IMG/VR virus record: IMGVR_UViG_3300020021_000008
Coordinates: 1-63,215 of that record
Length of the DNA stretch: 63,215 nucleotides
Origin: a virus
Direction: 5' to 3' (one strand)
The translations under genes were made by a program, and so were the position numbers. Positions 21,367 to 48,666 of this stretch are shown here, piece after piece; positions within the stretch are counted from its first letter, which is position 1; every line of letters starts with the position of its first letter. Below the pieces are notes generated by a model. That model was given only the letters and a program-made list of their open reading frames with translations, did not search any database and had not been told where the DNA came from.

Positions 21367-21368
21367 CC

Positions 21369-21560
21369 ATGACCATTCCCGAGATCAAACTCCTACCCAC
21401 CTGGGAGGAGTGCGAAACGGCCAGCGCTGCTGGTTCCGCCACTCCCCTCCAACTCTTCATCTACCTCGAGGAGACCGCCGAGCCCGACACGCACCTCTTC
21501 CGCGAGCGCCTAATCGCCCTACTCAACTCAATCACCACAGACACCTGGCAGGAGTCCTAA
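21369..21560 (+). CDS. Small acidic protein
   Basis: 63 aa, begins 2 bases after the previous stop. Contains LPTWEECETASAAGSATPLQ. Unknown. Confidence 0.45.
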   Translation: MTIPEIKLLPTWEECETASAAGSATPLQLFIYLEETAEPDTHLFRERLIALLNSITTDTWQES

Positions 21561-21562
21561 TC

Positions 21563-21748
21563 ATGCAAACCATCTCCATCATGAAGCCCACTCGCGGTAA
21601 CTCTGGTTGGATCGTCTGGATCCAGGTGGATGGCCACCAGTCGGTAGCGGTATTGCACTCTAATGCCGACACCGCAACGCTCCGCGCCTCCACCATCGCC
21701 GGCGTCCTCCGTGATACCCTTTCCCTCCACCCCCACCTAGAATTCTAG
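21563..21748 (+). CDS. Small beta-rich protein
   Basis: 61 aa, RBS CAGGAGTCCTAATC. Contains NSGWIVWIQVDGHQSVAVLH. The stop codon lies inside the 14-bp hairpin at 21738. Unknown. Confidence 0.45.
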   Translation: MQTISIMKPTRGNSGWIVWIQVDGHQSVAVLHSNADTATLRASTIAGVLRDTLSLHPHLEF

Positions 21749-21768
21749 CCCTTCGGGCTAGAATTCTA
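21738..21768 (+). terminator. Perfect 14-bp hairpin over a stop codon
   Basis: TAGAATTCTAGCCC-TTC-GGGCTAGAATTCTA. No T-tract, so it may act as an RNA end-protecting or processing hairpin. Confidence 0.5.
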
Positions 21769-21798
21769 CCCACCACCTGTAACCACGGAGCACCTCCA

Positions 21799-22167
21799 AT
21801 GTATGTTCATGTCGGGAACGAGTGTGATGGCCGCTGGGTCAAAGCCTTCAACACCGAGGCCGAGGCACGCACCAGCATCAAAGCCTATGCTATTATCGAC
21901 GAGTCCGACGCCCTCCCCCGTCGAGGAGTAAGTTACCACAGTGATATCGGCGGAACCCACTCCTACCACCGCCTCCCCCCAATTACTCACGCCACTCTCG
22001 TCGCGGCGCAATTCGAGTCCCTTCTCGATGCCTTCGACTCCCGCGAATGCGGCACCCTCACCGCCGCCCAGGTGGAGTTGTTGGCTCGAGTGGAACCGAC
22101 CTATGCCGAAGAAGAGCGCGGTGCCGCCATTCCAGAGCCGCCGAGAGGCGGCTCGCCCCAGCGCTGA
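21799..22167 (+). CDS. Early protein, unknown, 122 aa
   Basis: RBS GGAGCACCTCCA. N-terminal MYVHVGNECDGRWVKAF then a helix; later ATLVAAQFESLLDAF. No family recognised. Confidence 0.5.
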   Translation: MYVHVGNECDGRWVKAFNTEAEARTSIKAYAIIDESDALPRRGVSYHSDIGGTHSYHRLPPITHATLVAAQFESLLDAFDSRECGTLTAAQVELLARVEPTYAEEERGAAIPEPPRGGSPQR

Positions 22168-22180
22168 TAGGAGCACATTT

Positions 22181-22511
22181 CATGAGCACATTGCAGAGCA
22201 CCTTACTAGCCTATGCTGTTGAGCGAGCGATCACGAGACTCTTCCGAGGGCTTCGCCCTCTCCCTCTTACTCCGGAGTCATTGCAATGCCTTTCGATGCA
22301 GCACCAGAGACCGGCAAAGCCGGTCTCGCTCCCTGGCAAACCCTTCTCCTCGACGCCGCTGATATCATGGAGCGTCGAGGCGGATGTAAAGGCGAGCTTG
22401 TCAACAAGCGTGGCGAGGTGTGTTTCCTCGGCGCCCTGTCCGCCAGCGCATACGGCGATCCCTTCGCCCTCCATCACACCGGGGGTCGTTGTGACCATAA
22501 CTCCCCTTTAA
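22181..22511 (+). CDS. Possible small ORF with strong RBS, largely overlapping the next gene
   Basis: ATG 22181 has RBS GGAGCACATTTC like its neighbours, and the first 20 residues (STLQSTLLAYAVERAITRLF) look like an amphipathic helix. The frame has no stop until 22511 and overlaps the MPFD gene by more than 200 bases, so the natural end is doubtful. Confidence 0.25.
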
Positions 22512-27276: not shown

Positions 27277-27530
27277 TTACCGACGATCAAGGCCAAGCAA
27301 TCCTCGACCAGATAGTCGAGATCTCCAGCTCTCCACTGGAGGCCATGGAGTTGTGTGCCTCCATGCCAGCCACCTTTATCTACCACCACATCCCAGTATC
27401 TTCCACCGAGAACTTTCTCGTGGAGTACCTGGCCTCTATCCGCAGGTGCATCGAGGAGCACCAGCGTCTACACAACGCCCCAGACGGAACAGTCGACACT
27501 CCCGATACCGAGGCCAAGGAGCCCCTGTGA
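27273..27530 (+). CDS. Small protein, paralogue of 36160-36387
   Basis: 85 aa. The N-terminus DDQGQAILDQIVEISSSPLE parallels AEQGQALVDQILTLANND in the gene at 36160. Helical, unknown function; coupled to both neighbours. Confidence 0.5.
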   Translation: MITDDQGQAILDQIVEISSSPLEAMELCASMPATFIYHHIPVSSTENFLVEYLASIRRCIEEHQRLHNAPDGTVDTPDTEAKEPL

Positions 27531-27958
27531 TGACCGAGATCCACCTAGTCGCCACCCTCGTTGGAATGCACTTCCGCCCACCAGCCAAGGCCGTGCTCGC
27601 GCACCTCCCCGCCGAAGCCCAAGTCGATCTAATCCCGGAGCCGGACAATCCCTACGACGAGTTCGCGGTCAAGGTGTTAGTCGATCCCGATGCAGTCCCT
27701 GAGGACGAGTACGAGGCGCTGAGAGAGGATCTCGCCGCAAGCGGCTTCGACCTAGAGGAGCTACTCGGTGGCCCCTTCCTCCAGCTTGGTTACGTCGGCT
27801 CCAAACCAGGCAAAGCCGGACCAGTCTTTGGTGTCACCTACGCCCCGGAGTTGCAACCTCAGCTGCTCTCCGCCGAGGACTACAAAGCCACTCTCGGGTT
27901 CGACGTAAGCGGCGATCCTCTAGTCCACATTACAATTATCACCGAGGAGGCAACCTGA
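27530..27958 (+). CDS. HIRAN-domain protein
   Basis: 142 aa. VATLVGMHFRPPAKAVLAHL ... LIPEPDNPYDEFAVKVLVD ... LQLGYVGSKP matches the HIRAN pattern (VxGxxF, L.PEPxNPYDxxAVxV, xGYV). HIRAN domains bind ssDNA 3' ends or damaged DNA, usually inside helicases; here the domain stands alone. It overlaps the next gene by one base. Confidence 0.7.
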   Translation: MTEIHLVATLVGMHFRPPAKAVLAHLPAEAQVDLIPEPDNPYDEFAVKVLVDPDAVPEDEYEALREDLAASGFDLEELLGGPFLQLGYVGSKPGKAGPVFGVTYAPELQPQLLSAEDYKATLGFDVSGDPLVHITIITEEAT

Positions 27959-28824
27959 TGCCTACCAATCCCAACGACCTCAGACCTGATCTGGATCCAG
28001 TCGCGAGGCTGACTCGCGACATTCGCAACGCGGCAAGGACTCTCTCCACCGCCGAGGCGAGGTTCCTCGTCGATAGTTACTACCAAATGCAGCGGGATCG
28101 CATCCGTGCTGCTCACCAAGAGCGAACCCTCTCCGAAGGTGCCGAGCCCCACGACACCATGATGTGGCTGATGGGCCAGCGAGTCACCCTGGAGCAGCAG
28201 GTCGCCAGGGCACTGGACGCCTACAGCGCCAGCCATCCAGTAGGCGACTGGGCACGGAGCATATGCGGCATCGGCCCAGTGATCGCCGCCGGTCTCCTTG
28301 CTCACATCGATATCACCAAAGCCCCCAGCGTCGGTCATATCTGGCGCTTCGCCGGGCTGGACCCAACCGTGAAGTGGACCAAGGGCAACAAGCGCCCTTG
28401 GAACGGCGCGCTCAAGAGGCTCTGCTGGCTCATCGGCGAGTCGTTCGTCAAAGTGTCCAGCAATGAGAACGACATTTACGGCCAGATCTACAAGGCCCGC
28501 AAGGAACTCGAGATCCAGCGCAACGAGGCCGGTCGGTTCGCTGACCAGGCCAAAGCCGCGCTCGCCGAGAAGAAGTTCGGTGCCGACACCGAAGCTCGGA
28601 AGTGGTACGAGCTGGGAAAGTTACCGCCGGCAAGGATCCACCTGAGGTCCGAGCGTTACGCAGTTAAATTGTTCCTATCCCACCTCCACCACGTGATGTA
28701 CGAGAACCACTTTCACAAACCTCCTGAGAAACCCTACATCTTCAACGAGGGAGCAGCTATCGCCACGGGGACCGGACCGCATACCCATTACCTCGCCCCA
28801 CCGAACTGGCCCCGGAGCACCTAG
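27958..28824 (+). CDS. IS110/IS116-type C-terminal-domain (Transposase_20, HhH) protein
   Basis: 288 aa. Residues about 98-165: ICGIGPVIAAGLLAHIDI, then FAGLDPTV and NGALKRLCWLIGESFVK, the helix-hairpin-helix pattern of the Transposase_20 domain. The N-terminal DEDD RuvC-like catalytic domain of full IS110 recombinases is not seen, so this is a domain-only relative. It is followed within 175 bases by the 2.1-kb repeat array. A link to that array is attractive because IS110 enzymes use structured guide RNAs, but it is only inference. Confidence 0.65.
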   Translation: MPTNPNDLRPDLDPVARLTRDIRNAARTLSTAEARFLVDSYYQMQRDRIRAAHQERTLSEGAEPHDTMMWLMGQRVTLEQQVARALDAYSASHPVGDWARSICGIGPVIAAGLLAHIDITKAPSVGHIWRFAGLDPTVKWTKGNKRPWNGALKRLCWLIGESFVKVSSNENDIYGQIYKARKELEIQRNEAGRFADQAKAALAEKKFGADTEARKWYELGKLPPARIHLRSERYAVKLFLSHLHHVMYENHFHKPPEKPYIFNEGAAIATGTGPHTHYLAPPNWPRST

Positions 28825-28826
28825 AG

Positions 28827-28994
28827 GTGCTCCGGCAGTGGCGACACCCAATACTGAAACTAGCATTCCTGTCGGTGTTGGCAGGAGGAGTGGGTTACGT
28901 ACTTGGTGTAGCGTTTCCGCTGCCTTGGAATATAATTGCGTCAACTGTCAGTGGTGTATGTTTCGGGAGGTTCTACATACGCTGGAGCCGATAA
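28827..28994 (+). CDS. Small membrane protein, 55 aa
   Basis: GTG 28827, three bases after the previous stop, with GGAGCACCTAGAG as RBS. TM1 LKLAFLSVLAGGVGYVLGVA, TM2 IIASTVSGVCFGRFYI. Ends 4 bases before the repeat array. Confidence 0.4.
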   Translation: MLRQWRHPILKLAFLSVLAGGVGYVLGVAFPLPWNIIASTVSGVCFGRFYIRWSR

Positions 28995-28998
28995 TGTC

Positions 28999-31094
28999 GA
29001 GAGTACCGTTATAACGGAGTAACTGAGACCACCGTAGCCAGGAGGCGCGAGTGTGCTAATAGTGGAGAGCAGGCCAAGGCCACTTGAGCCATCATCCACG
29101 AGTGTACCAATGAATGGGAGCGAGCCGCAAGCTATGAGTGTACCGGTATTCTGGAGCGAGCTGGAAAACGTGAGTGTACCGTTCTGGACGAGCCGGGGCC
29201 AGACGAAACTACCGAGTGTACCGATTAAGGTGATCGAGCCCAGTCGAATGAGTGTACCAAACTAGGCGAGCCAGCAGAGGTGAGTGTGCCATCAACGCTG
29301 AGCAAGCCGAGAAGTTGGAGTGTGCCGAAAGCTCTGTGCGAGCCGCGTTGTAGGAGTGTACCGCGTCCCACGAGCCCAGACGTGATATCTGAGCGTACCG
29401 ATTAAGGTGATCGAGCCACCACCTTTGAGTGTACCATGTTTGTAGAGCCCGAAGTTGTGAGAGTACCATCTATGGAGAGCATCTAACCGTGTAGTGAGAG
29501 CGTACCGTGCAAGAAGAGCGAGCCGGGAGTCTCGAGTGTGCCATGTTTGTAGAGCGAGCCCGAGGCTTTGCCTCAGCCAGCGACGATGAGAGTACCGCCG
29601 ACATGAAGCAGAGCACTTCGTGCTTCAGCCGTCATACTCGAGTGTTCCGGAGTATCTGAGCAAGCCAGCCCTCGTGAGTGTACCGTCGAACCTGAGCGAG
29701 CCAGGGGACATGAGTGTTCTGGAAGTGTGGAGCGGCAAGTCGAAGCGAGCCGGTAAGTGTGAGTGTACCGTGTGGAGCGAGCCGAGACGTGTGAGTGTGC
29801 CGAAAACTCTGAGCCACGCGCAGCCGTCGTTCGAGAGTGTGCCACAGCTATTGAGCCGGAGCGCGTGAGAGTACCATGTATCGCGAGCAGCCGAGAACTG
29901 CTAGTGTGCCGTGCAGTTCGAGCGGGCCACAGAACCTGAGCGTACCGTGCTATTGGAGCAGGGGCAAAGCCCACTCAGCCCCAACGGCTGAGAGTACCGT
30001 GGCAAACGAGCCGAGAGATGTGAGTGTGCTAGGGCATTTGAGCCAAGATACAGGAGTGTACCGCCCGCAGCGAGCCGAGGCCGCGAAGCGGCCTCTCTAG
30101 CCAATGATATCGAGTGTACCGTGAATAGGGAGCCCCAGAGCCGAGGCCATCGAGAGTACCAAGTTTCGCGAGCCAAAAGCACAGTGTGTACCGTACTGGA
30201 CGAGCCCCGACAGTTGAGCGTGCCGAGGTATCTGATCGAGCCGGATAGCAGGAGTGTACCGAGTTTGGAGAGCCAGGGTACGGGAGTGTACCGCCTGACA
30301 GGAGCTCCAGCGTGAGGCCAGCCGGATTGTCGGAGTGTGCCGCTTCCCACGAGCAAGCCCGGGTTGTTGAGTGTGCCATTTGGGCTGAGCCAAGCCAACA
30401 CCCGTGAGTGTACCAATGTCCTTGAGCGAGCCGACATGTTTGAGTGTACCGGAGTGTCAGAGACCACCAGCCGTGTCCTATAAGTGTGCCACAACTGTCG
30501 AGCCGATAGTCTTGAGTGTGCCAACATTACAGAGCAAGCCAACTGGCGCGAGTGTACCAAGCCTCTGGAGCAATAGTTGCTGCCCTAGCCGGAACAGCTG
30601 AGTGTACCGCCTTGCATGAGCAGCCGCCAAGCTTGAGTGTACCGTAATTACGGAGCCAACTGGTGTGAGTGTGCCAATCCTCTGGAGCCAACTCATGCGA
30701 GTGTACCGTACTTGTGGAGCAGCCGTCGGCCGTGTAGTGTACCGAGTGATGTGAGCAGCCATTTGATGGGAGTGTACCGTGCTGTTAGAGCAGCGAAGCC
30801 ACCTTTAGCCACAACTACTGAGAGTACCGGAATTCTGGAGCGAGCCAAGTGGAGTGAGTGTACCATGACTGCAGAGCCCCACAGACGAATGTCCCGAGTG
30901 TACCATGATTGCTGAGCCGCAAGGTCCGAGTGTGCCAAGGCAATAGAGCCGAGTCGAGGCCCGAAGGGCCTCTAGCCTGAAATCGTGAGTGTACCAAACC
31001 ATAGGAGCTGGGCTTCACCATCAGCCACAAGGGTAGAGTGTACCAAAGTCATGGAGCGGCGAAGCCGCTCTCAGCCAAAACACCAGAGAGTACC
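28999..31094 (+). repeat. Non-coding array of alternating short boxes separated by 9-base variable segments
   Basis: Box A (consensus GAGTGTACC; variants GAGAGTACC, GAGTGTGCC, GAGCGTACC) occurs about 54 times. Between successive A boxes lies one box B: GAGCC, GAGCGAGCC, GAGCAAGCC, GAGCAGCC, or GAGC...AGCC (rarely ...AGAC) enclosing a hairpin such as CGGCGAAGCCG. Hand alignment shows A-N9-B-N9-A throughout, with only about one 10-base exception. The segment after A always begins with a purine. The variable 9-mers are nearly all different. Unit length varies (32, 36 or more), so no reading frame is kept. It lies in the sense of the flanking genes, and its last variable segment contains the helicase start codon. 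Confidence 0.9.
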
Positions 31095-31100
31095 ATCGAT

Positions 31101-32633
31101 ATGGATCGCGCTGACATTATCCCTACCCCAGAACAATCCGCCATCATCGACGCAGCGATCAATTCTCCGCTGTCCCTCATGATCAGCGCCGATGCCGGTT
31201 GTGCCAAGACCACTGCGCTTGAACTCGCCGCATGGGCCATGCCTCCAGGGCCATCGCTCGCCCTCGCCTTCGGAGTGAAAAACAAAACCGAACTCGAGCG
31301 TCGGTTCCCTCCTCACTTCACGGTGCTGACGCTGAATGGCCTCGGCCACCGGGCTTGGGGCCGAGCGTCCCGCCAGACCCTAATAGTCGATGAGCGTAAA
31401 GTCGGAAGGTTGTTAACTGCTGTGGCTAAGGACCAGGGCTATGCACTGTCGAAAGAGCAGTGGAGTGACGTCCGCTCTATCGTGTCGCACGCTCAGCACT
31501 TGGGCCTGGTCCCCAGTGACTATCCTCACAAGGGTCTCATGGTGGACACGCCGGAGAGCTGGGTGGACATTGCCGATGCGCTGCTCGTCACCGACGCCGA
31601 GCCCCTCCTGCCATTGGCCAGATCCGTGCTCTGTGCTGCCATTGCCGAGTCGTTCACGGGCCTGATCTCCTACGACGACCAGATCTACATGAGTGCTCTG
31701 TTCAACGGGAATTTTCCTCGCTTCCCGAGGGTGTTCGTGGACGAGGCCCAGGACCTCTCCCCCATCAACCACCTCCAGATTAAGCGAACCCTCCTCGACC
31801 GTCTCATTGTCGCCGGAGATGACAAGCAGGGGATATACGCCTGGAGAGGTGCCGACAGTAGTTCCATGCGCTCCATGCGAGCACTCCGCAAGGATTGGCT
31901 AGACCTGAGGCTCTCGGTGACCTTCCGCTGCCCGCGAGTCGTAGTGGCTCGCCAGCAGTCCCACGCCCCAGGTTTCACGGCAGCACCAGCCAACGCCGAC
32001 GGCGAGATCTGGGACTGGAGCTTCAACCACGACCGTTGGACCTGGGCCACCATTGGCGCCGAGCCCAAGCAGTCCGTAGCCATTCTCTGCCGCAACAACG
32101 CTCCCCTCATGGCGATTGCCATGAAGCTCATTCGCCAGGGTGTCGGGGCGGTGATGCTTGGGAGAGAGATCGGAAAGGGCCTAGTCTCGCTGGCCAAAAA
32201 GATCATCCCTCTCGATAGCATTCCCGCCTCCGAGTGCCGAAGGTTGATCCTGCAGTGGGCCTCGGACCAGATCGAAGTTGCTGCCGCCAACGACAAGCAC
32301 GAGAAAATCGCCGGTTTCGAGGATCGCCGAGACAGCCTCCTCGCTGTGCTGGACTCCGGTCCGCCTAACTCCGGTGCCATGCGCAAGGCGCTCGACGAAT
32401 TGTTCTCCCGTGCCTCTGGCCGAGTGACCCTCTCCACCATCCACAAGTTTAAGGGCCTCGAAAGTGATATTGTCGTCCACCTCGATCCGTGGCGAGTCCC
32501 CTCGAAGTGGGCGCGCTTAGCGTTGTCTGCCGGCGACGACAGACCCATGATGCAGGAGTTGAACCTTCGCTACGTAGTGGAGACTCGTACTCGCCATACT
32601 CTAATACTTGCCAACTTGGAGGATTTCCAATGA
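31101..32633 (+). CDS. UvrD/Rep-like superfamily 1 helicase
   Basis: 510 aa from ATG 31101, which lies in the last 9-base segment of the array. Motif I SADAGCAKTT (about residue 30), motif II VFVDEAQDLS, motif III GDDKQGIYAWRGAD, motif IV-like VTFRCP, motif V TIHKFKGLE and motif VI-like RYVVETRTR are all present. It should unwind DNA 3' to 5' in replication or recombination. It is shorter than UvrD (720 aa); the 1B/2B insertions are reduced. Confidence 0.85.
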   Translation: MDRADIIPTPEQSAIIDAAINSPLSLMISADAGCAKTTALELAAWAMPPGPSLALAFGVKNKTELERRFPPHFTVLTLNGLGHRAWGRASRQTLIVDERKVGRLLTAVAKDQGYALSKEQWSDVRSIVSHAQHLGLVPSDYPHKGLMVDTPESWVDIADALLVTDAEPLLPLARSVLCAAIAESFTGLISYDDQIYMSALFNGNFPRFPRVFVDEAQDLSPINHLQIKRTLLDRLIVAGDDKQGIYAWRGADSSSMRSMRALRKDWLDLRLSVTFRCPRVVVARQQSHAPGFTAAPANADGEIWDWSFNHDRWTWATIGAEPKQSVAILCRNNAPLMAIAMKLIRQGVGAVMLGREIGKGLVSLAKKIIPLDSIPASECRRLILQWASDQIEVAAANDKHEKIAGFEDRRDSLLAVLDSGPPNSGAMRKALDELFSRASGRVTLSTIHKFKGLESDIVVHLDPWRVPSKWARLALSAGDDRPMMQELNLRYVVETRTRHTLILANLEDFQ

Positions 32634-38060: not shown

Positions 38061-38202
38061 GTTGCGTGGCGTATGGGTCGGTTACTTCGGTTAGAGCGCC
38101 GACGTCCGCTTGTGTCGGAGGTTGTGGGTTCGAGTCCCACTGAGGGTGGCAGTGATGCTGCGCTTATAGCTCAATCCCAACTGTCCCTCCTGTTCCCGCA
38201 AC
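38061..38202 (+). ncRNA. Y-RNA-like unit 6 with tRNA mimic opened in the D loop
   Basis: Closing helix GTTGCG/CGCAAC, bulged T, GG/CC, TCGGTTACTTC, 3' GTTCC. Inside: GGTTA-GAGC (D-arm 3' strand, 38094-38097), arm CCGAC...GTCGG, T arm GTGGG-TTCGAGT-CCCAC (38124-38140), 11-bp stem capped by GTGA (38152-38155), TA, and GCTC (38169-38172) pairing back with GAGC. The mimic therefore keeps an anticodon-like arm and is joined to the Y stem through its D loop. It ends 20 bases before the Ro60 start. Confidence 0.75.
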
Positions 38203-38222
38203 TCGGAGCCCCGGAGCCCATC

Positions 38223-39533
38223 ATGGAACTCAACCGCACAGTCGGTCCCGTCACTTTCGAGGGAGCCCCCGCAGCGCCCACCACTCCCGAGCAGGCTCTC
38301 CGCCGCTCGGTAATGTCGTGCCTGTTGTGGGAGCGTGAGTTCTACGAGGATGGAACAGCAATTGCGGACCGCATAGAGATACTCTGTGCCAAGGTTCCCC
38401 ACAGCGTCATCGCGGCACTCGCCATCGAGGCCAGGCATAAAATGCACCTGCGGCACGTGCCGCTCCTGCTGTTGGCAACGCTTGCCAAGCTGGCCCCGGG
38501 GTCATCTCTGGTGTCCGACACCATCGAAACCACCGTGGCGAGAGCGGACGAGCTTACCGAACTCCTTGCCATCTACTGGCGCCGTGGCAAGTGCCCGCTG
38601 AGTGCCCAACTCAAGAAGGGCCTCGCCAAGGCATTCCGCAAGTTCAACTCCTACCAGCTGGCCAAGTACAACCGCCCGAAGCCAATTCGCTTGCGGGATG
38701 TGATGTTCCTCGTCCACGCCAAGCCGGACGCCGAGAGCGAGTCCACCTATCGGGACCTCGCAAACAAGACTCTTGCCTCGCCCGACACCTGGGAGGTCGC
38801 TCTGAGTGCCGGTGCGGACAAGTGCGAAACGTTCACTCGGCTCATCAAGGCCGGAGAGCTGGGGTATTTGGCGCTCCTCCGTAACCTCCGCAACATGGCC
38901 GAGGCGGGAGTGGACACAGAGCTAGTCCGCAACGCCATTGTCGCAGGGAAGGGGGCGCATCAGGTCCTCCCTTTCCGCTACGTTGCGGCGCTGAGAGCCG
39001 CCCCTCAGTTCGCGAACGAACTCGACTACGCCTTACAGCAGTCCATCGCGAAGCTGCCCCTGCTACTCGGAACCACTCTGGTGGTGGTGGATGTGTCGGG
39101 CTCGATGAACGATACGCTGTCCCAGCGTTCGGACCTCACTCGCATGGACGCCGCTGCGGCCCTCGCCGCACTCATCAACGGGAGTCGCCTCAGGGTATTT
39201 ACCTTCTCCGACAAGGTGGTCGAGTGTGCTCCGTGGCGCGGCCTCGCTGGGATCTCCGAGATCCTTGGCTCCCAGCACCACTCGGGCACGTACCTCGGCC
39301 AGGCCCTTGCCACCATCCTCGCCGCAACAGAGAACCAGTGGGACCGCCTGATTGTCATCACTGACGAGCAGTCCCATGATCGTGTGAGGCACCCTGGCCG
39401 GGGCCGCTGTTACATGATCAACGTCGCCAGTGCGAAGCACGGCGTCGGCTACGGCGAGTGGCTTCACATCGACGGCTTCAGCGAAAATGTGATCCGCTAC
39501 ATCGCCGAGTTCGAAGCAGCTTTGGCCCGGTAA
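38223..39533 (+). CDS. Ro60 / Rsr-like TROVE-VWA RNA-binding protein
   Basis: 436 aa from ATG 38223 (RBS CGGAGCCCATC). The N-terminal 280 residues form a HEAT-like TROVE domain (CLLWEREFYEDGTAIADRIE, LAIEARHKMHLRHVPLLLL, AYNRPK-like KYNRPKPIRLRDVMFLVHAK, KTLASPDTWEVALS). The C-terminal VWA domain has the MIDAS motif VVDVSGSMN, then a Thr/Asp pair. Ro60 rings bind Y RNAs and the 3' ends of misfolded RNAs; in bacteria the gene usually neighbours its Y RNAs, exactly as here. Slightly shorter than Deinococcus Rsr. Confidence 0.85.
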   Translation: MELNRTVGPVTFEGAPAAPTTPEQALRRSVMSCLLWEREFYEDGTAIADRIEILCAKVPHSVIAALAIEARHKMHLRHVPLLLLATLAKLAPGSSLVSDTIETTVARADELTELLAIYWRRGKCPLSAQLKKGLAKAFRKFNSYQLAKYNRPKPIRLRDVMFLVHAKPDAESESTYRDLANKTLASPDTWEVALSAGADKCETFTRLIKAGELGYLALLRNLRNMAEAGVDTELVRNAIVAGKGAHQVLPFRYVAALRAAPQFANELDYALQQSIAKLPLLLGTTLVVVDVSGSMNDTLSQRSDLTRMDAAAALAALINGSRLRVFTFSDKVVECAPWRGLAGISEILGSQHHSGTYLGQALATILAATENQWDRLIVITDEQSHDRVRHPGRGRCYMINVASAKHGVGYGEWLHIDGFSENVIRYIAEFEAALAR

Positions 39534-43932: not shown

Positions 43933-45324
43933 ATGCCCATCACCGACGACTTCCAAGTAATCCACACTGCCTCCATTATCATCAATCGTGACGAGCGCCA
44001 GCGCAGCAAAATCGACACAGGGTCGCTTCGCGACAGCATCCGGCGCAACGGCCTCATCAGCCCGGTCGTAGTGACCAGGGATCTGGTGCTGGTGGCCGGT
44101 GAGCGCCGCCTTACGGCGTGTCGAGAACTCGGTCACGAGACCATTGCAGTGAGGTTCGTGGAGGATCTCTCGCCCCTGGAACTCATGATCATTGAGCTAG
44201 AGGAGAACCTCAAACGGAGTGATTTGCCGTGGCAGGACGAAGTGAAGGCCGTGGCGAAACTTCACGAGTTGTACTGCACCATCACCCCTGGATGGTCGCA
44301 GGTTCAATCCGCCGAGGCCCTCTCCATCGCCGGCTCGTACTTGAGTTCCATTCTACGCGTAGCACGAGAACTCGATGACCCCCGTATCTCGACGGCTACT
44401 GGGGTGATGCCCGCGTACAACGTCCTCGCACGCATTGATGAGCGCAGGATCGGCGATGCAGTAGGCGCCATCATGGATGCCGGGGAGGAGATATTTGCGC
44501 CGCCATCAATCCCGGCGCCACCGCTCAAGCCCGGCGAGAAAGCCCCACCTAAGGCCACCGTGATCGCCGCTCCGGCAGAGTCAATTCTCCAAACATCCTT
44601 TTTCTCCTGGGCACCCCAGTACACCGGACCCAGGTTCAACTTCATCCACTGCGACTTCCCCTACGGAATGAACGTGTTCGGTGGGGCTATGAGCGGCCGT
44701 GACAAGTGGGCCACCACAGCCCAAGGGAAGGCACCGTATAGTGATAGCAAAGAGGACTACTGGAACCTCATCGCGTGTCTCTGCGATAACCTCGACCGAA
44801 TAATGAGCCCGCAAGGGCATCTGATGTTCTGGTTCTCCATGGAGCACTACGTGGCGACTCTCGAGGCTTTCCGCAAGCAAGCACCATCACTGATATTCAG
44901 CCCTTTCCCCCTAGTGTGGGTAAAGAGCGACAACGTGGGGATCCTCCCCGACTCCAACCGTGGTCCCCGGCGAGTGTACGAGACCGCCCTAGTCGCCTCG
45001 CGAGAGGACCGCTTCATCGTCAAACCTGTTGGCAACGCCATCTTCGCTCCCACCAACAAGGACCACCATCCCAGCACCAAGCCCGAGCCCGTGCTCAAGC
45101 ATTTCTTCCAGATGTTCGTGGACGAGAACACCACCCTGTTCGACCCAACGTGTGGGAGTGCCAGTGCTCTACGCGCGGCGGAGTGCCTCGGAGCGAAACG
45201 AGTCCTTGGCCTCGAGTCCGACATCGAACACCACGCAAATGCGTGCTCAGCGCTCAAGCTCTTTCGCACTCTCCGCGCTGCGGCGAACCTGCTGGCGAAG
45301 CCCGAACCCCTGCCGGCACCATGA
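43933..45324 (+). CDS. ParB-domain / DNA methyltransferase fusion
   Basis: 463 aa. Residues about 20-110 are a ParB/Srx-type domain (DTGSLRDSIRRNGLISPVVV, LVAGERRLTACREL, IELEENLKRSDL). Residues about 230-450 are an N4/N6 methyltransferase: motif IV variant CDFPYGMNVFG (DPPY replaced by DFPY), later HPSTKPEPVLKHFF, and motif I FDPTCGSASALRAAECLGAKRVLGLE. The order IV before I marks a beta-type MTase. It may protect phage DNA from restriction. Confidence 0.75.
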   Translation: MPITDDFQVIHTASIIINRDERQRSKIDTGSLRDSIRRNGLISPVVVTRDLVLVAGERRLTACRELGHETIAVRFVEDLSPLELMIIELEENLKRSDLPWQDEVKAVAKLHELYCTITPGWSQVQSAEALSIAGSYLSSILRVARELDDPRISTATGVMPAYNVLARIDERRIGDAVGAIMDAGEEIFAPPSIPAPPLKPGEKAPPKATVIAAPAESILQTSFFSWAPQYTGPRFNFIHCDFPYGMNVFGGAMSGRDKWATTAQGKAPYSDSKEDYWNLIACLCDNLDRIMSPQGHLMFWFSMEHYVATLEAFRKQAPSLIFSPFPLVWVKSDNVGILPDSNRGPRRVYETALVASREDRFIVKPVGNAIFAPTNKDHHPSTKPEPVLKHFFQMFVDENTTLFDPTCGSASALRAAECLGAKRVLGLESDIEHHANACSALKLFRTLRAAANLLAKPEPLPAP

Positions 45325-46385
45325 GCGGGCTTGCGCCGCCGTTCGCTCACACCAGTGGGCCAAGGGACGCCTCCGTGGTGCTGGTCGGTGAGGCATGGGG
45401 AGAACAGGAAGAACTAACCGGCTATCCATTTGTAGGTGCATCGGGCCAGGAGTTGTCGCGGATACTACTCGACGCTGGCCTTAAGCGCCAGGACCTCCTG
45501 CTGACGAATGTCCTCGCCAAGCGCCCTCCCAACAATAACATCGATCTCCTCTGCGGTCCCAAGAAAGACGCCGGGTTCAACTATGCACTTGCTCCGCTCC
45601 GACAAGGCAAATACCTCATGCCCGAGCATCTCCCAGAACTCGACCGTCTGGGCGAGGAGTTGGCGTTTGCTCCGCGCACTCTTGTTGTGGCTCTTGGGGC
45701 TACTGCTTGCTGGGCTCTGTTGGGCCGTGGTGCTATTGGGAGTTTACGTGGTGTCGTGGCTCGGGGAGTGGGTCCTGGGGAACACCTAAAAGTGCTCCCG
45801 ACCTACCATCCAGCAGCAGTGTTGCGCAACTGGTCCCTCCGCGTAGTGGTGTTGCAGGATCTGCTCAAAGCCAAGCGGGAGGCGCTGTTCCCCGAGATTC
45901 GCCGTCCGCATCGCGAGGTGTTAGTCGATCCGACACTCCCGGAGATAGCGGAGTGGTATCAGGAGGCTTCCCGTGCTGAGTTGCTCGCTGTTGACATTGA
46001 GACTATGCACAAAACAATCTCCTGCGTGGGCTTTGCACGCAGCGCCAATCGGGCTATCTGCATCCCTTTTGCTGATGATCGATTTCTGGCTCGAAGTTAC
46101 TGGCCTACTGTCGCTGATGAGGTAGCGGCGTGGGAGTGGGTGAGGGCGCTACTGCAACTTCCGGTCCCCAAGGTGTTCCAAAACGGAGTGTATGACATTT
46201 CGTACCTCTGGCGGATGGGCCTCCCCGTCCGCAACAGCCTCCACGATACCATGCTTCTTCACCACTCGATGTTTCCGGAATTGCAGAAGAGTCTCGGGTT
46301 TATGGGCAGCATTTATACCTCGGAGAGTTCATGGAAATTAATGCGGCAGAGGAAGAAGGAAGAAGATTTGAAGAGGGAGGAGTGA
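45321..46385 (+). CDS. Uracil-DNA glycosylase fused to the start of a 3'-5' exonuclease domain
   Basis: 354 aa, ATGA overlap with the MTase gene. Residues 1-190 are a family-4-like UDG: VGEAWGEQEELTGYPFVGAS, TNVLAKRPPNNN, and PTYHPAAVLRN. Residues 200-354 are a DnaQ-like exonuclease: Exo I LLAVDIETMH, Exo II FQNGVYDISYL, then HDTMLLHHSMFPELQKSLGF. It stops before Exo III; that motif is in the polymerase gene at 47155. UDG-exo-pol is the order of the SPO1 polymerase. Confidence 0.75.
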   Translation: MSGLAPPFAHTSGPRDASVVLVGEAWGEQEELTGYPFVGASGQELSRILLDAGLKRQDLLLTNVLAKRPPNNNIDLLCGPKKDAGFNYALAPLRQGKYLMPEHLPELDRLGEELAFAPRTLVVALGATACWALLGRGAIGSLRGVVARGVGPGEHLKVLPTYHPAAVLRNWSLRVVVLQDLLKAKREALFPEIRRPHREVLVDPTLPEIAEWYQEASRAELLAVDIETMHKTISCVGFARSANRAICIPFADDRFLARSYWPTVADEVAAWEWVRALLQLPVPKVFQNGVYDISYLWRMGLPVRNSLHDTMLLHHSMFPELQKSLGFMGSIYTSESSWKLMRQRKKEEDLKREE

Positions 46386-47154: not shown

Positions 47155-48666
47155 GTGCCAGTCATCCGCACCGACGAACTCGTCGAGGGCCAGCGCACCC
47201 CACAGCAGGAGCAGATTTACAATGGTCTGGACTGCTGTGTGACGTTCGAGGTACATGAGGCGCTCCAAACGCTCTTCAACGTGGAGCCTGAGGTCTATGG
47301 GTTTGAGCGGGCGCTCCAGGGACCAGCGCTCGAAATGTCGATGAGAGGGTTTAGGATTGATGAAACCGAGAGGCGAATTGGTGCAGCGGCGCTAAGGCGC
47401 AAGCTCGTCAGGTTAGACAACGTGTTGCAGCAACTCGCGTTCGCCGTGTGGGGAAAGGGCCTTAACCCCAGGTCACCCAAACAGCTGATCGACTTCTTCT
47501 ACGGCACGATGCACCTGCCGGAACAATGGTCCAGCAAGAAGGGCGTGAGGCGGCTCTCCACCGATAGGGAGACCCTGGAGAAGCTCCAGATCTACTTCCA
47601 CGCCCTCCCCATCATCACCACCATTTTGGCAGTTCGTGATTATGCAAAGCAATTGGAGGTACTGGAGACCGAGATCGACCCGGACGGCCGGTTTCGTACA
47701 AGCTTTAATATCGCAGGAACTGAGACATGGCGGTTCAGCAGCTCAGGTAGTGTCACTGGAACGGGGAGAAATATCCAAAACATTGCTCCCGAATTACGCA
47801 AAATGTTCGTGGCGGACCCCGGCTACATTCTGGTCGGTATCGATCTGGAGCAGGCGGAGAGTCGAGAGGTGGGTTGGCTCTGCGGCACCATTCTGGGCGA
47901 TTGGACCTATCTCGATGCGTGTTACAGTGGAGACCTGCACGTTACCACAGCAAAGCTTATCTGGAGAGATCTCGGTTGGACTGGAGATCCGAAGCGCGAC
48001 CGAGCTTTGGCTGACGTCAAATTCTATCGTGAGTTCTCATATCGGGACCTGGCCAAGCGAGGGGGACACGGTAGTAACTATATGGGTACGCCGTGGACTA
48101 TGGCGAGGCATCTCAAAGTGGTGCTTCGTCTTATGGAAGATTTCCAAAGGGCGTATTTCACTGCGTACCCGGCCATTCCCAAATGGCACAGGTGGGTTGC
48201 TACGCAAATCCAAACCACGCACCAGCTCACTACTCCGTGGGAGGTGACGAGGACGTTTTTCGGCAGGCCGAGCGACGACACCACGCTCCGCGAAGCGATA
48301 GCATTCAGCCCACAGAGTTCTACTGCGATGCGGATGAACCTCGGCATGTGGAGGGTCTGGAATGAAATGGGATCGGACGTTCAACTTCTCGCTCAAGTCC
48401 ACGACGCCATTTACTTCCAGGTCCCCATCACCAGCGACATTCCAGCGATTTGTTCTCGTGCCCTCAGTCTCATCGATATCCGTCACAGTCACGGTGGACG
48501 TGAGTTGGTCGTGCCGGGAGAATGCAAGGTTGGATTCAACTGGGCCGCGCACCACGTCCACGACGAGAAGTGTCAGCCCGGTTGCACTCTAACTGTCAAC
48601 CCTAATGGACTGCGGAAGGGCACCGCCCTTCGACCCAGACTGGAGGGCCTCGACCGCGTGTTCTAA
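47155..48666 (+). CDS. DNA polymerase A, polymerase domain with Exo III at its N-terminus
   Basis: 503 aa from GTG. N-terminal QQEQIYNGLDCCVTFEVHEA is the Exo III (YxxxD) end of an exonuclease domain whose first part lies at 45321. Polymerase motif A GIDLEQAESREVGWL, motif B RDLAKRGGHGSNYMGTP and motif C LAQVHDAIYF are complete. The replicative polymerase thus depends on two polypeptides associating, unless RNA or protein splicing joins them. Confidence 0.85.
   Translation: MPVIRTDELVEGQRTPQQEQIYNGLDCCVTFEVHEALQTLFNVEPEVYGFERALQGPALEMSMRGFRIDETERRIGAAALRRKLVRLDNVLQQLAFAVWGKGLNPRSPKQLIDFFYGTMHLPEQWSSKKGVRRLSTDRETLEKLQIYFHALPIITTILAVRDYAKQLEVLETEIDPDGRFRTSFNIAGTETWRFSSSGSVTGTGRNIQNIAPELRKMFVADPGYILVGIDLEQAESREVGWLCGTILGDWTYLDACYSGDLHVTTAKLIWRDLGWTGDPKRDRALADVKFYREFSYRDLAKRGGHGSNYMGTPWTMARHLKVVLRLMEDFQRAYFTAYPAIPKWHRWVATQIQTTHQLTTPWEVTRTFFGRPSDDTTLREAIAFSPQSSTAMRMNLGMWRVWNEMGSDVQLLAQVHDAIYFQVPITSDIPAICSRALSLIDIRHSHGGRELVVPGECKVGFNWAAHHVHDEKCQPGCTLTVNPNGLRKGTALRPRLEGLDRVF

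What the first reader, a model, noticed from the sequence alone, without database searches (positions are those of the whole stretch)
28999..31094. A 2.1-kb non-coding array of two alternating boxes with exact 9-base variable gaps
Seen: about 54 copies of GAGTGTACC (with a few one-base variants) alternate with GAGCC or GAGC...AGCC. The segment after each box is 9 bases long essentially every time, on both sides, although box B itself ranges from 5 to about 30 bases because of inserted hairpins. The fixed 9 is therefore selected, not a by-product of a fixed period. Nearly all 9-mers are unique, and all that follow box A begin with a purine. The frame is not kept and both strands are full of stops. 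It is unlike CRISPR (repeats too short), iterons or coding repeats. Ideas: an RNA with many 9-base guides or binding registers; a DNA platform for a protein that counts 9 bases between contacts; a decoy array. I know of no described element with this layout.
Basis: seen in the sequence. Interest (0 to 1): 0.95.

Follow-up and report, generated by a model that had tools for sequence, protein, structure and literature searches.

The report
Phage TIGR guide-RNA array with TasA
The striking array of fixed 9-base gaps is the guide-RNA array of a TIGR-Tas system, an RNA-guided DNA-targeting system described in 2025, here in a virus that probably infects soil bacteria, with 53 paired guides and unusually variable, sometimes hairpin-bearing loops.

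Summary
Array 28999-31085 parses as 53 units: edge repeat GAGTGTACC, 9-nt spacer A, loop repeat GAGC...GCC, 9-nt spacer B. The exact 9 occurs on each side of 38 of 47 strictly matched edge boxes; 1000 shuffles never gave more than 2 and 4. It is not an undescribed element. The adjacent upstream gene (27958-28824) encodes a TasA protein. Its only significant sequence matches among solved structures are the TIGR nucleases TasR and TasH, then IS110-family recombinases with a profile. Its predicted fold ranks TasR/TasH complexes first to eleventh. Almost all of about 80 IMG/VR relatives carry the same kind of array beside the same gene, mostly with the standard 36-nt period. So this is a TIGR (tandem interspaced guide RNA) array, published by Faure et al. 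in 2025. Unusual here: loop repeats of 5-32 nt, several with strong hairpins. 31 of 53 fall outside the published 8-12 nt. A sister phage shares this; the next relative has mostly fixed 9-nt loops. No natural target was found. Processing and function are inferred.

The parts
27530..27958 (+). small gene whose stop overlaps the tasA start (ATGA); weak HIRAN-domain similarity; operon neighbour, not shown to belong to the system
   Evidence: Pfam HIRAN E=0.012, below the curated cut-off; overlap read from the sequence
27958..28824 (+). tasA: 288-aa all-helical Nop-domain TIGR-associated protein without a nuclease domain
   Evidence: phmmer vs PDB: TasR 9mty 7e-12, TasH 2.5e-9; profile: TasR 2e-28, TasH 8e-16, IS621 1.5e-6; Foldseek top 11 all TasR/TasH; no strands in the model; Pfam Transposase_20 partial, 2.6e-5
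28967..28998 (+). degenerate first unit at the 5' end: edge-like GAGGTTCTA, 9 nt, GAGCC, 9 nt
   Evidence: read from the sequence; [quoted passage not shown]
28999..31085 (+). TIGR array, 53 complete units: edge repeat (GAGTGTACC type), spacer A 9 nt, loop repeat 5-32 nt (GAGC...GCC), spacer B 9 nt
   Evidence: similar arrays beside relatives' tasA genes
30072..30102 (+). 31-nt loop repeat with an 8-bp hairpin (GAGGCCGC-GAA-GCGGCCTC)
   Evidence: (z -2.6)
30946..30977 (+). 32-nt loop repeat with a 7-bp hairpin (GAGGCCC-GAA-GGGCCTC)
31054..31076 (+). 23-nt loop repeat with a 7-bp hairpin (GAGCGGC-GAA-GCCGCTC)
   Evidence: z -3.2; z -2.7 for the whole unit
31086..31108 (+). terminal half unit: edge GAGAGTACC, 9 nt, truncated loop GATCG; overlaps the start of the next gene
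   Evidence: many relatives' arrays end as edge-9-truncated loop just before the next gene
31101..32633 (+). UvrD-like helicase gene directly downstream; probably shares the transcript, not shown to be part of the system
   Evidence: Pfam UvrD-helicase 1.2e-11, PHROG DNA helicase 2.7e-63; no '+' strand terminator between array and gene

Best explanation
This is a TIGR-TasA system of a P22-like phage. Shown by sequence: a Nop-domain TasA gene followed directly by an array of 53 units, each with two 9-nt spacers set between an edge repeat and a loop repeat that share box-D-like GAG and box-C-like CC(R) ends. Inferred from the experimentally studied relatives: the array is transcribed with tasA and cut within the edge repeats into tigRNAs, here about 32-59 nt rather than 36. 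Each tigRNA is bound by a TasA dimer and directs it to an 18-bp DNA site, spacer A pairing with one strand and spacer B with the other. With no nuclease domain, TasA would bind and bend DNA rather than cut it, most plausibly to block competing mobile elements or to regulate genes. Loop length is variable because the loop seems to make no specific protein contacts, so only its GAG and CC ends are held.
For: TasA identity: phmmer against all PDB sequences gives only TasR (7.1e-12) and TasH (2.5e-9) as significant hits. A 15-member profile gives TasR 2.3e-28, TasH 7.7e-16, IS621 1.5e-6 and ISCro4 3e-5. The AlphaFold2 model (pLDDT 82.9, pTM 0.80) matches TasR/TasH complexes at ranks 1-11 and IS110-family recombinases next. 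Array grammar equals the published definition: alternating repeats, 9-nt spacers, beside the tas gene, with 9-nt spacing far beyond chance. Association: in 80 IMG/VR relatives nearly every tasA-like gene has an adjacent array, mostly of period 36 with loop GAGCGAGCC. Isolate Microcystis phage Mvi-JY20 has a tasA-like gene plus an array. Edge and loop repeats share their GAG and CC ends, as reported for box D and box C.
Against: Loop repeats of 5-32 nt depart from the published 8-12 nt dual-repeat rule, so tigRNA maturation and TasA binding are not assured for every unit. No spacer pair has a convincing target: none with 2 or fewer mismatches in its own genome or the nearest sister phage, and no excess over shuffled pairings in 1.76 Mb of phage DNA. 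No terminator ends the array, although TIGR arrays typically have one. There are no RNA data.
Confidence: 0.95

Rival explanations
1. The array is a decaying or partly dead TIGR array: loop expansion and hairpin insertion are the result of relaxed selection, and only a subset of units still yields usable tigRNAs.
For: Nearest relative G007 (TasA 80-82% identical) has mostly regular 9-nt loops, so the variable loops are probably derived. Some edges carry two mismatches, and a few loops lack a clean GAGC or GCC end.
Against: TasA is intact and well conserved. Spacers stay at exactly 9 nt on both sides although loops vary freely, which neutral decay would not preserve. The same loop style is kept in sister phage G001, whose spacers are almost all different.
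Confidence: 0.15
2. Hairpin loops are a functional addition, for example a processing signal, a protein-binding handle or a way to stabilise chosen tigRNAs, giving guides of different classes within one array.
For: About seven loops have strong hairpins. G001 also has hairpin loops. Stem-loop TIGR arrays in other Tas clades show that extended stems are tolerated.
Against: The hairpins share no common sequence, and most loops lack one. No partner protein is identified.
Confidence: 0.25
3. A DNA platform for a protein that counts 9 bp between contacts, a replication or partition site, or a decoy array.
For: Many short repeats in a non-coding stretch.
Against: Loop insertions of 0-27 nt change the helical phase at random. 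The array is strand-polar and sits beside a Nop-domain RNA-binding protein in nearly every relative.
Confidence: 0.02
4. The adjacent gene is an IS110-type transposase and the array is a set of bridge-RNA-like or recombination sites.
For: Pfam Transposase_20 and the PHROG label 'transposase'.
Against: The model is all helical with no room for a DEDD RuvC-like domain. Sequence and fold are closer to TasR/TasH than to IS621. The array has the dual-repeat grammar of TIGR, not a single two-loop bridge RNA.
Confidence: 0.02

Closest known systems
TIGR-Tas, dual-repeat arrays with TasA (Faure et al. 2025, PMC12045711)
   Same: Nop-domain protein without nuclease; adjacent array of alternating edge and loop repeats with 9-nt spacers A and B; shared box D and box C ends; phage location.
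   Different: 53 units, against 'most often 5 to 15'; loop repeats 5-32 nt with some hairpins, against 8-12 nt repeats and a 36-nt unit; no terminator found; the array runs into the next gene.
TIGR stem-loop arrays (same paper, other Tas clades)
   Same: Variable intervening sequence in the loop position; spacers flanked by C and D boxes.
   Different: Here the edge repeats are conserved, short and not palindromic, and only the loop side varies.
IS110/IS621 recombinase with bridge RNA
   Same: Homologous Nop-like RNA-binding domain.
   Different: No DEDD nuclease domain and no bridge RNA; a multi-unit array instead.
Archaeal/eukaryotic box C/D snoRNPs
   Same: Same working principle by the published comparison: a Nop dimer, two guide segments, C and D boxes.
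   Different: No kink-turn, L7Ae or fibrillarin was looked for or is expected; tandem array; DNA target expected.
CRISPR arrays
   Same: Tandem repeats separated by variable sequences next to an effector gene.
   Different: Two alternating short repeats, 9-nt spacers, no cas genes found near it in the searches made.

Membership tests
TIGR-Tas (dual-repeat) | Nop-domain Tas protein encoded beside the array | tested here: met
TIGR-Tas (dual-repeat) | Two distinct alternating repeats separated by 9-nt unique spacers | tested here: met
   104 of 106 spacers distinct
TIGR-Tas (dual-repeat) | Repeats of 8-12 nt giving a unit of about 36 nt (a size norm of the published arrays rather than the core definition) | tested here: not met
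   edge repeats of 9 nt meet it; only 22 of 53 loop repeats are 8-12 nt; units 32-59 nt. Met in G007 and most relatives.
TIGR-Tas (dual-repeat) | Box D and box C motifs shared by edge and loop repeats | tested here: met
   GAG start and CC end in both, kept in relatives with other repeat sequences; contacts with TasA not tested
TIGR-Tas (dual-repeat) | Truncated edge at the ends and a terminator after the array | tested here: inconclusive
   degenerate half unit at the 5' end and truncated loop at the 3' end; no terminator on the + strand
TIGR-Tas (dual-repeat) | Processing into tigRNAs within edge repeats | not testable with these tools
   needs RNA sequencing
TIGR-Tas (dual-repeat) | Tandem-spacer pairing with opposite DNA strands | tested here: inconclusive
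   no target found in own genome, sister phage or 1.76 Mb of phage DNA; binding not testable
TasA subgroup | No RuvC or HNH nuclease domain | tested here: met
   Pfam shows only Transposase_20; all-helical 288-aa model
TIGR stem-loop arrays | Palindromic sequences in place of edge repeats | tested here: not met
   edge repeats are conserved GAGTGTACC-type boxes
IS110 transposon | DEDD (RuvC-like) catalytic domain plus bridge RNA | tested here: not met
   all-helical model; array instead of a bridge RNA
Rfam families | Match to a curated RNA family | tested here: not met
   no match in the whole window

The most novel reading that the evidence does not exclude
A hybrid TIGR architecture in which the edge repeat and the spacers stay fixed while the loop position has become an insertion site for hairpins. 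Guides of 32-59 nt would then share one TasA, and hairpin loops could mark or tether particular guides. Such arrays would diversify by re-pairing single spacers rather than by acquiring whole units.
Probability: 0.25. Interest if true: 0.6.

Novelty: new variant of a known kind. Interest (0 to 1): 0.42.

Why it matters
It identifies one of the largest TIGR arrays among the relatives seen here and shows that the loop repeat can shrink to 5 nt or grow to 32 nt without disturbing the 9-nt spacers, which bears on how TasA recognises and matures its guides. Three related phages (variable, variable and mostly regular loops) give a ready comparison. The excess of singly re-used spacers speaks to the open question of how TIGR arrays grow. 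It also shows that phage genes labelled 'transposase' (phrog_4285) can be TasA.

Tried and rejected
Spacer targets: scanned the target layout A + 0-2 nt + reverse complement of B. My derivation of that layout came from the reported 8-nt 3' overhangs and the C-5 rule. Own genome and sister phage: no hit with 2 or fewer mismatches. 292 units in 1.1 Mb and 1247 units in 1.76 Mb: no excess over wrong-order or shuffled-partner controls. One unit partly shared with G001 (29588) scanned across IMG/VR gave 5 exact hits, about what I estimate chance gives. Three spacer pairs of a related provirus have no exact target in its own Acidobacteriaceae host genome. Rfam and tRNA: nothing. DNA similarity of the array to isolated phages: none. 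tasA homologues in plasmids: none. Coding repeat: rejected (stops, frame not kept). CRISPR, iterons, bridge RNA and DNA platform: rejected as above. Table S1 of the TIGR paper could not be opened, so whether this contig is already listed there is unknown.

Full report
The array is real. Between 28999 and 31094 a program finds 54 edge boxes enclosing 53 complete units of the form GAGTGTACC-9-GAGC...GCC-9. Strict boxes alone show the distance of exactly 9 in 38 of 47 cases on each side. Shuffling the sequence between boxes 1000 times never gave more than 2 and 4. The combined pattern occurs 31 times where 0.09 is expected.

The surroundings explain it. The gene just upstream, 27958-28824, carries a partial Pfam Transposase_20 match and a PHROG label 'transposase'. 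Searched against the sequences of all solved structures it has only two significant matches, 9mty (TasR) and TasH. A profile of fifteen relatives strengthens these and adds the IS110 recombinases IS621 and ISCro4. The predicted structure is all helical, mean pLDDT 83. Foldseek places TasR and TasH complexes at ranks 1 to 11, then IS110-family recombinases. There is no sign of a RuvC or HNH domain, so it is a TasA.

TIGR-Tas was described by Faure et al. (PMC12045711): arrays of two alternating 8-12-nt repeats with 9-nt spacers beside a Nop-domain protein, processed to 36-nt tigRNAs whose two spacers pair with opposite DNA strands. The layout here is that layout. The edge repeat is GAGTGTACC and the loop repeat GAGC...GCC. 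Both start with GAG and end with CC, matching the reported rule that box D and box C motifs covary between edge and loop repeats.

Relatives confirm the association. In IMG/VR 387 stretches encode relatives of the profile and the 80 best were read. Nearly all have an array directly beside the gene, most often with loop GAGCGAGCC and a period of 36. L099 appeared empty only because its contig ends there; its array is L035, at the other end of the same contig. L157 gave only one unit. Some long 'loops' in those parses (27 or 45 nt) are edges missed by a parser tuned to this window. Arrays also occur in Acidobacteriota, Gemmatimonadetes and other MAGs and in one Acidobacteriaceae genome, and in the isolate Microcystis phage Mvi-JY20. 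Phage CGphi29, the source of the published TasH, is also hit. The host of the window's own phage was not established; soil or Acidobacteriota hosts are suggested only by these relatives.

What differs here. Loop repeats have lengths 5 (13 units), 8-12 (22) and 13-32 (18), so predicted tigRNAs are 32-59 nt. About seven of the long loops hold strong hairpins with short GAA, AAA or TTT loops. Sister phage G001 (58 kb, TasA 84% identical, portal 90%) has the same style of loops. G007 (TasA 80-82%) has mostly 9-nt loops over 46 units. The TasA tree joins window and G001 with moderate support, 82/77, and all three firmly, 97/96. The variable loops thus look derived in this small lineage. L125 also has variable loops of 11-33 nt. 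[quoted passage not shown] The paper describes variable intervening sequences only for stem-loop arrays that lack edge repeats, so this combination appears new, though the supplementary figures could not be read. The unit count is high against the published 'most often 5 to 15', but relatives reach 52, 46 and 40, so length is not unique.

Spacer evolution. Between window and G001 only two of 53 B spacers are identical, plus one partly shared unit. Between window and G007 nothing exceeds expectation clearly. Within arrays, single spacers recur with unrelated partners: over the arrays tested, 35 A-A and 29 B-B pairs with at most one mismatch, against 6.5 and 5.7 expected. The window shows 6 A-A and 0 B-B (the pair list, which includes one unit dropped, gives 7 A-A). 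The control shuffled columns and ignores other sequence biases. This suggests that half units are copied or re-paired.

Targets. None found. These searches cover little of what such a phage meets, and they relied on exact or near-exact pairing, so the negative is weak.

Mechanism. Shown: gene identity, array grammar, conservation of the association, loop variation. Inferred: joint transcription with tasA and the UvrD-like helicase (same strand, no terminator found on that strand), cutting in edge repeats, TasA dimer binding, DNA binding without cutting. The biological role, blocking rival elements or regulating genes, is a guess shared with the original authors. Verdict: a confirmed observation, a partly right interpretation, and a known kind of system with an unusual loop variant.

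Noticed in passing
window 38073-39533: The phage encodes a Ro60-like TROVE/von Willebrand protein (Pfam TROVE 3e-12), a second RNA-binding protein in the same genome; no Y RNA was looked for beyond Rfam.
   Followed up: no
window 43933-45324: Fusion of a ParB N-terminal domain with an N6/N4 DNA methylase; it is not in the tasA operon, unlike the published TasParB.
   Followed up: no
window 44916-46385: Uracil-DNA glycosylase domain joined to a weak 3'-5' exonuclease match, near a family A DNA polymerase gene (47155-48666).
   Followed up: no
window 29588-29639 and L035 911-954: One atypical unit with loop AAGC... is partly shared by the two sister phages (GCCGACATG / GCCGACGTG); in the window its spacer B can pair with its own edge repeat.
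   Followed up: partly
L098 (Microcystis phage Mvi-JY20, PP438412.1 about 21367-22300): A tasA-like gene annotated as hypothetical protein is followed by a TIGR-like array that ends in a terminator-like hairpin; an isolate with a known host, useful for target searches.
   Followed up: partly
many relatives, e.g. L101, L102, L107, L124, L130: Arrays end as edge - 9 nt - truncated loop (GAGCG...) only a few bases before the ATG of the next gene, as if the truncated loop doubled as a ribosome-binding site.
   Followed up: no
PHROG phrog_4285 (match: window 27958-28824): This phage protein family, labelled 'transposase', matches TasA over nearly its full length (3.5e-50) and may be a mislabelled TasA family.
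   Followed up: no
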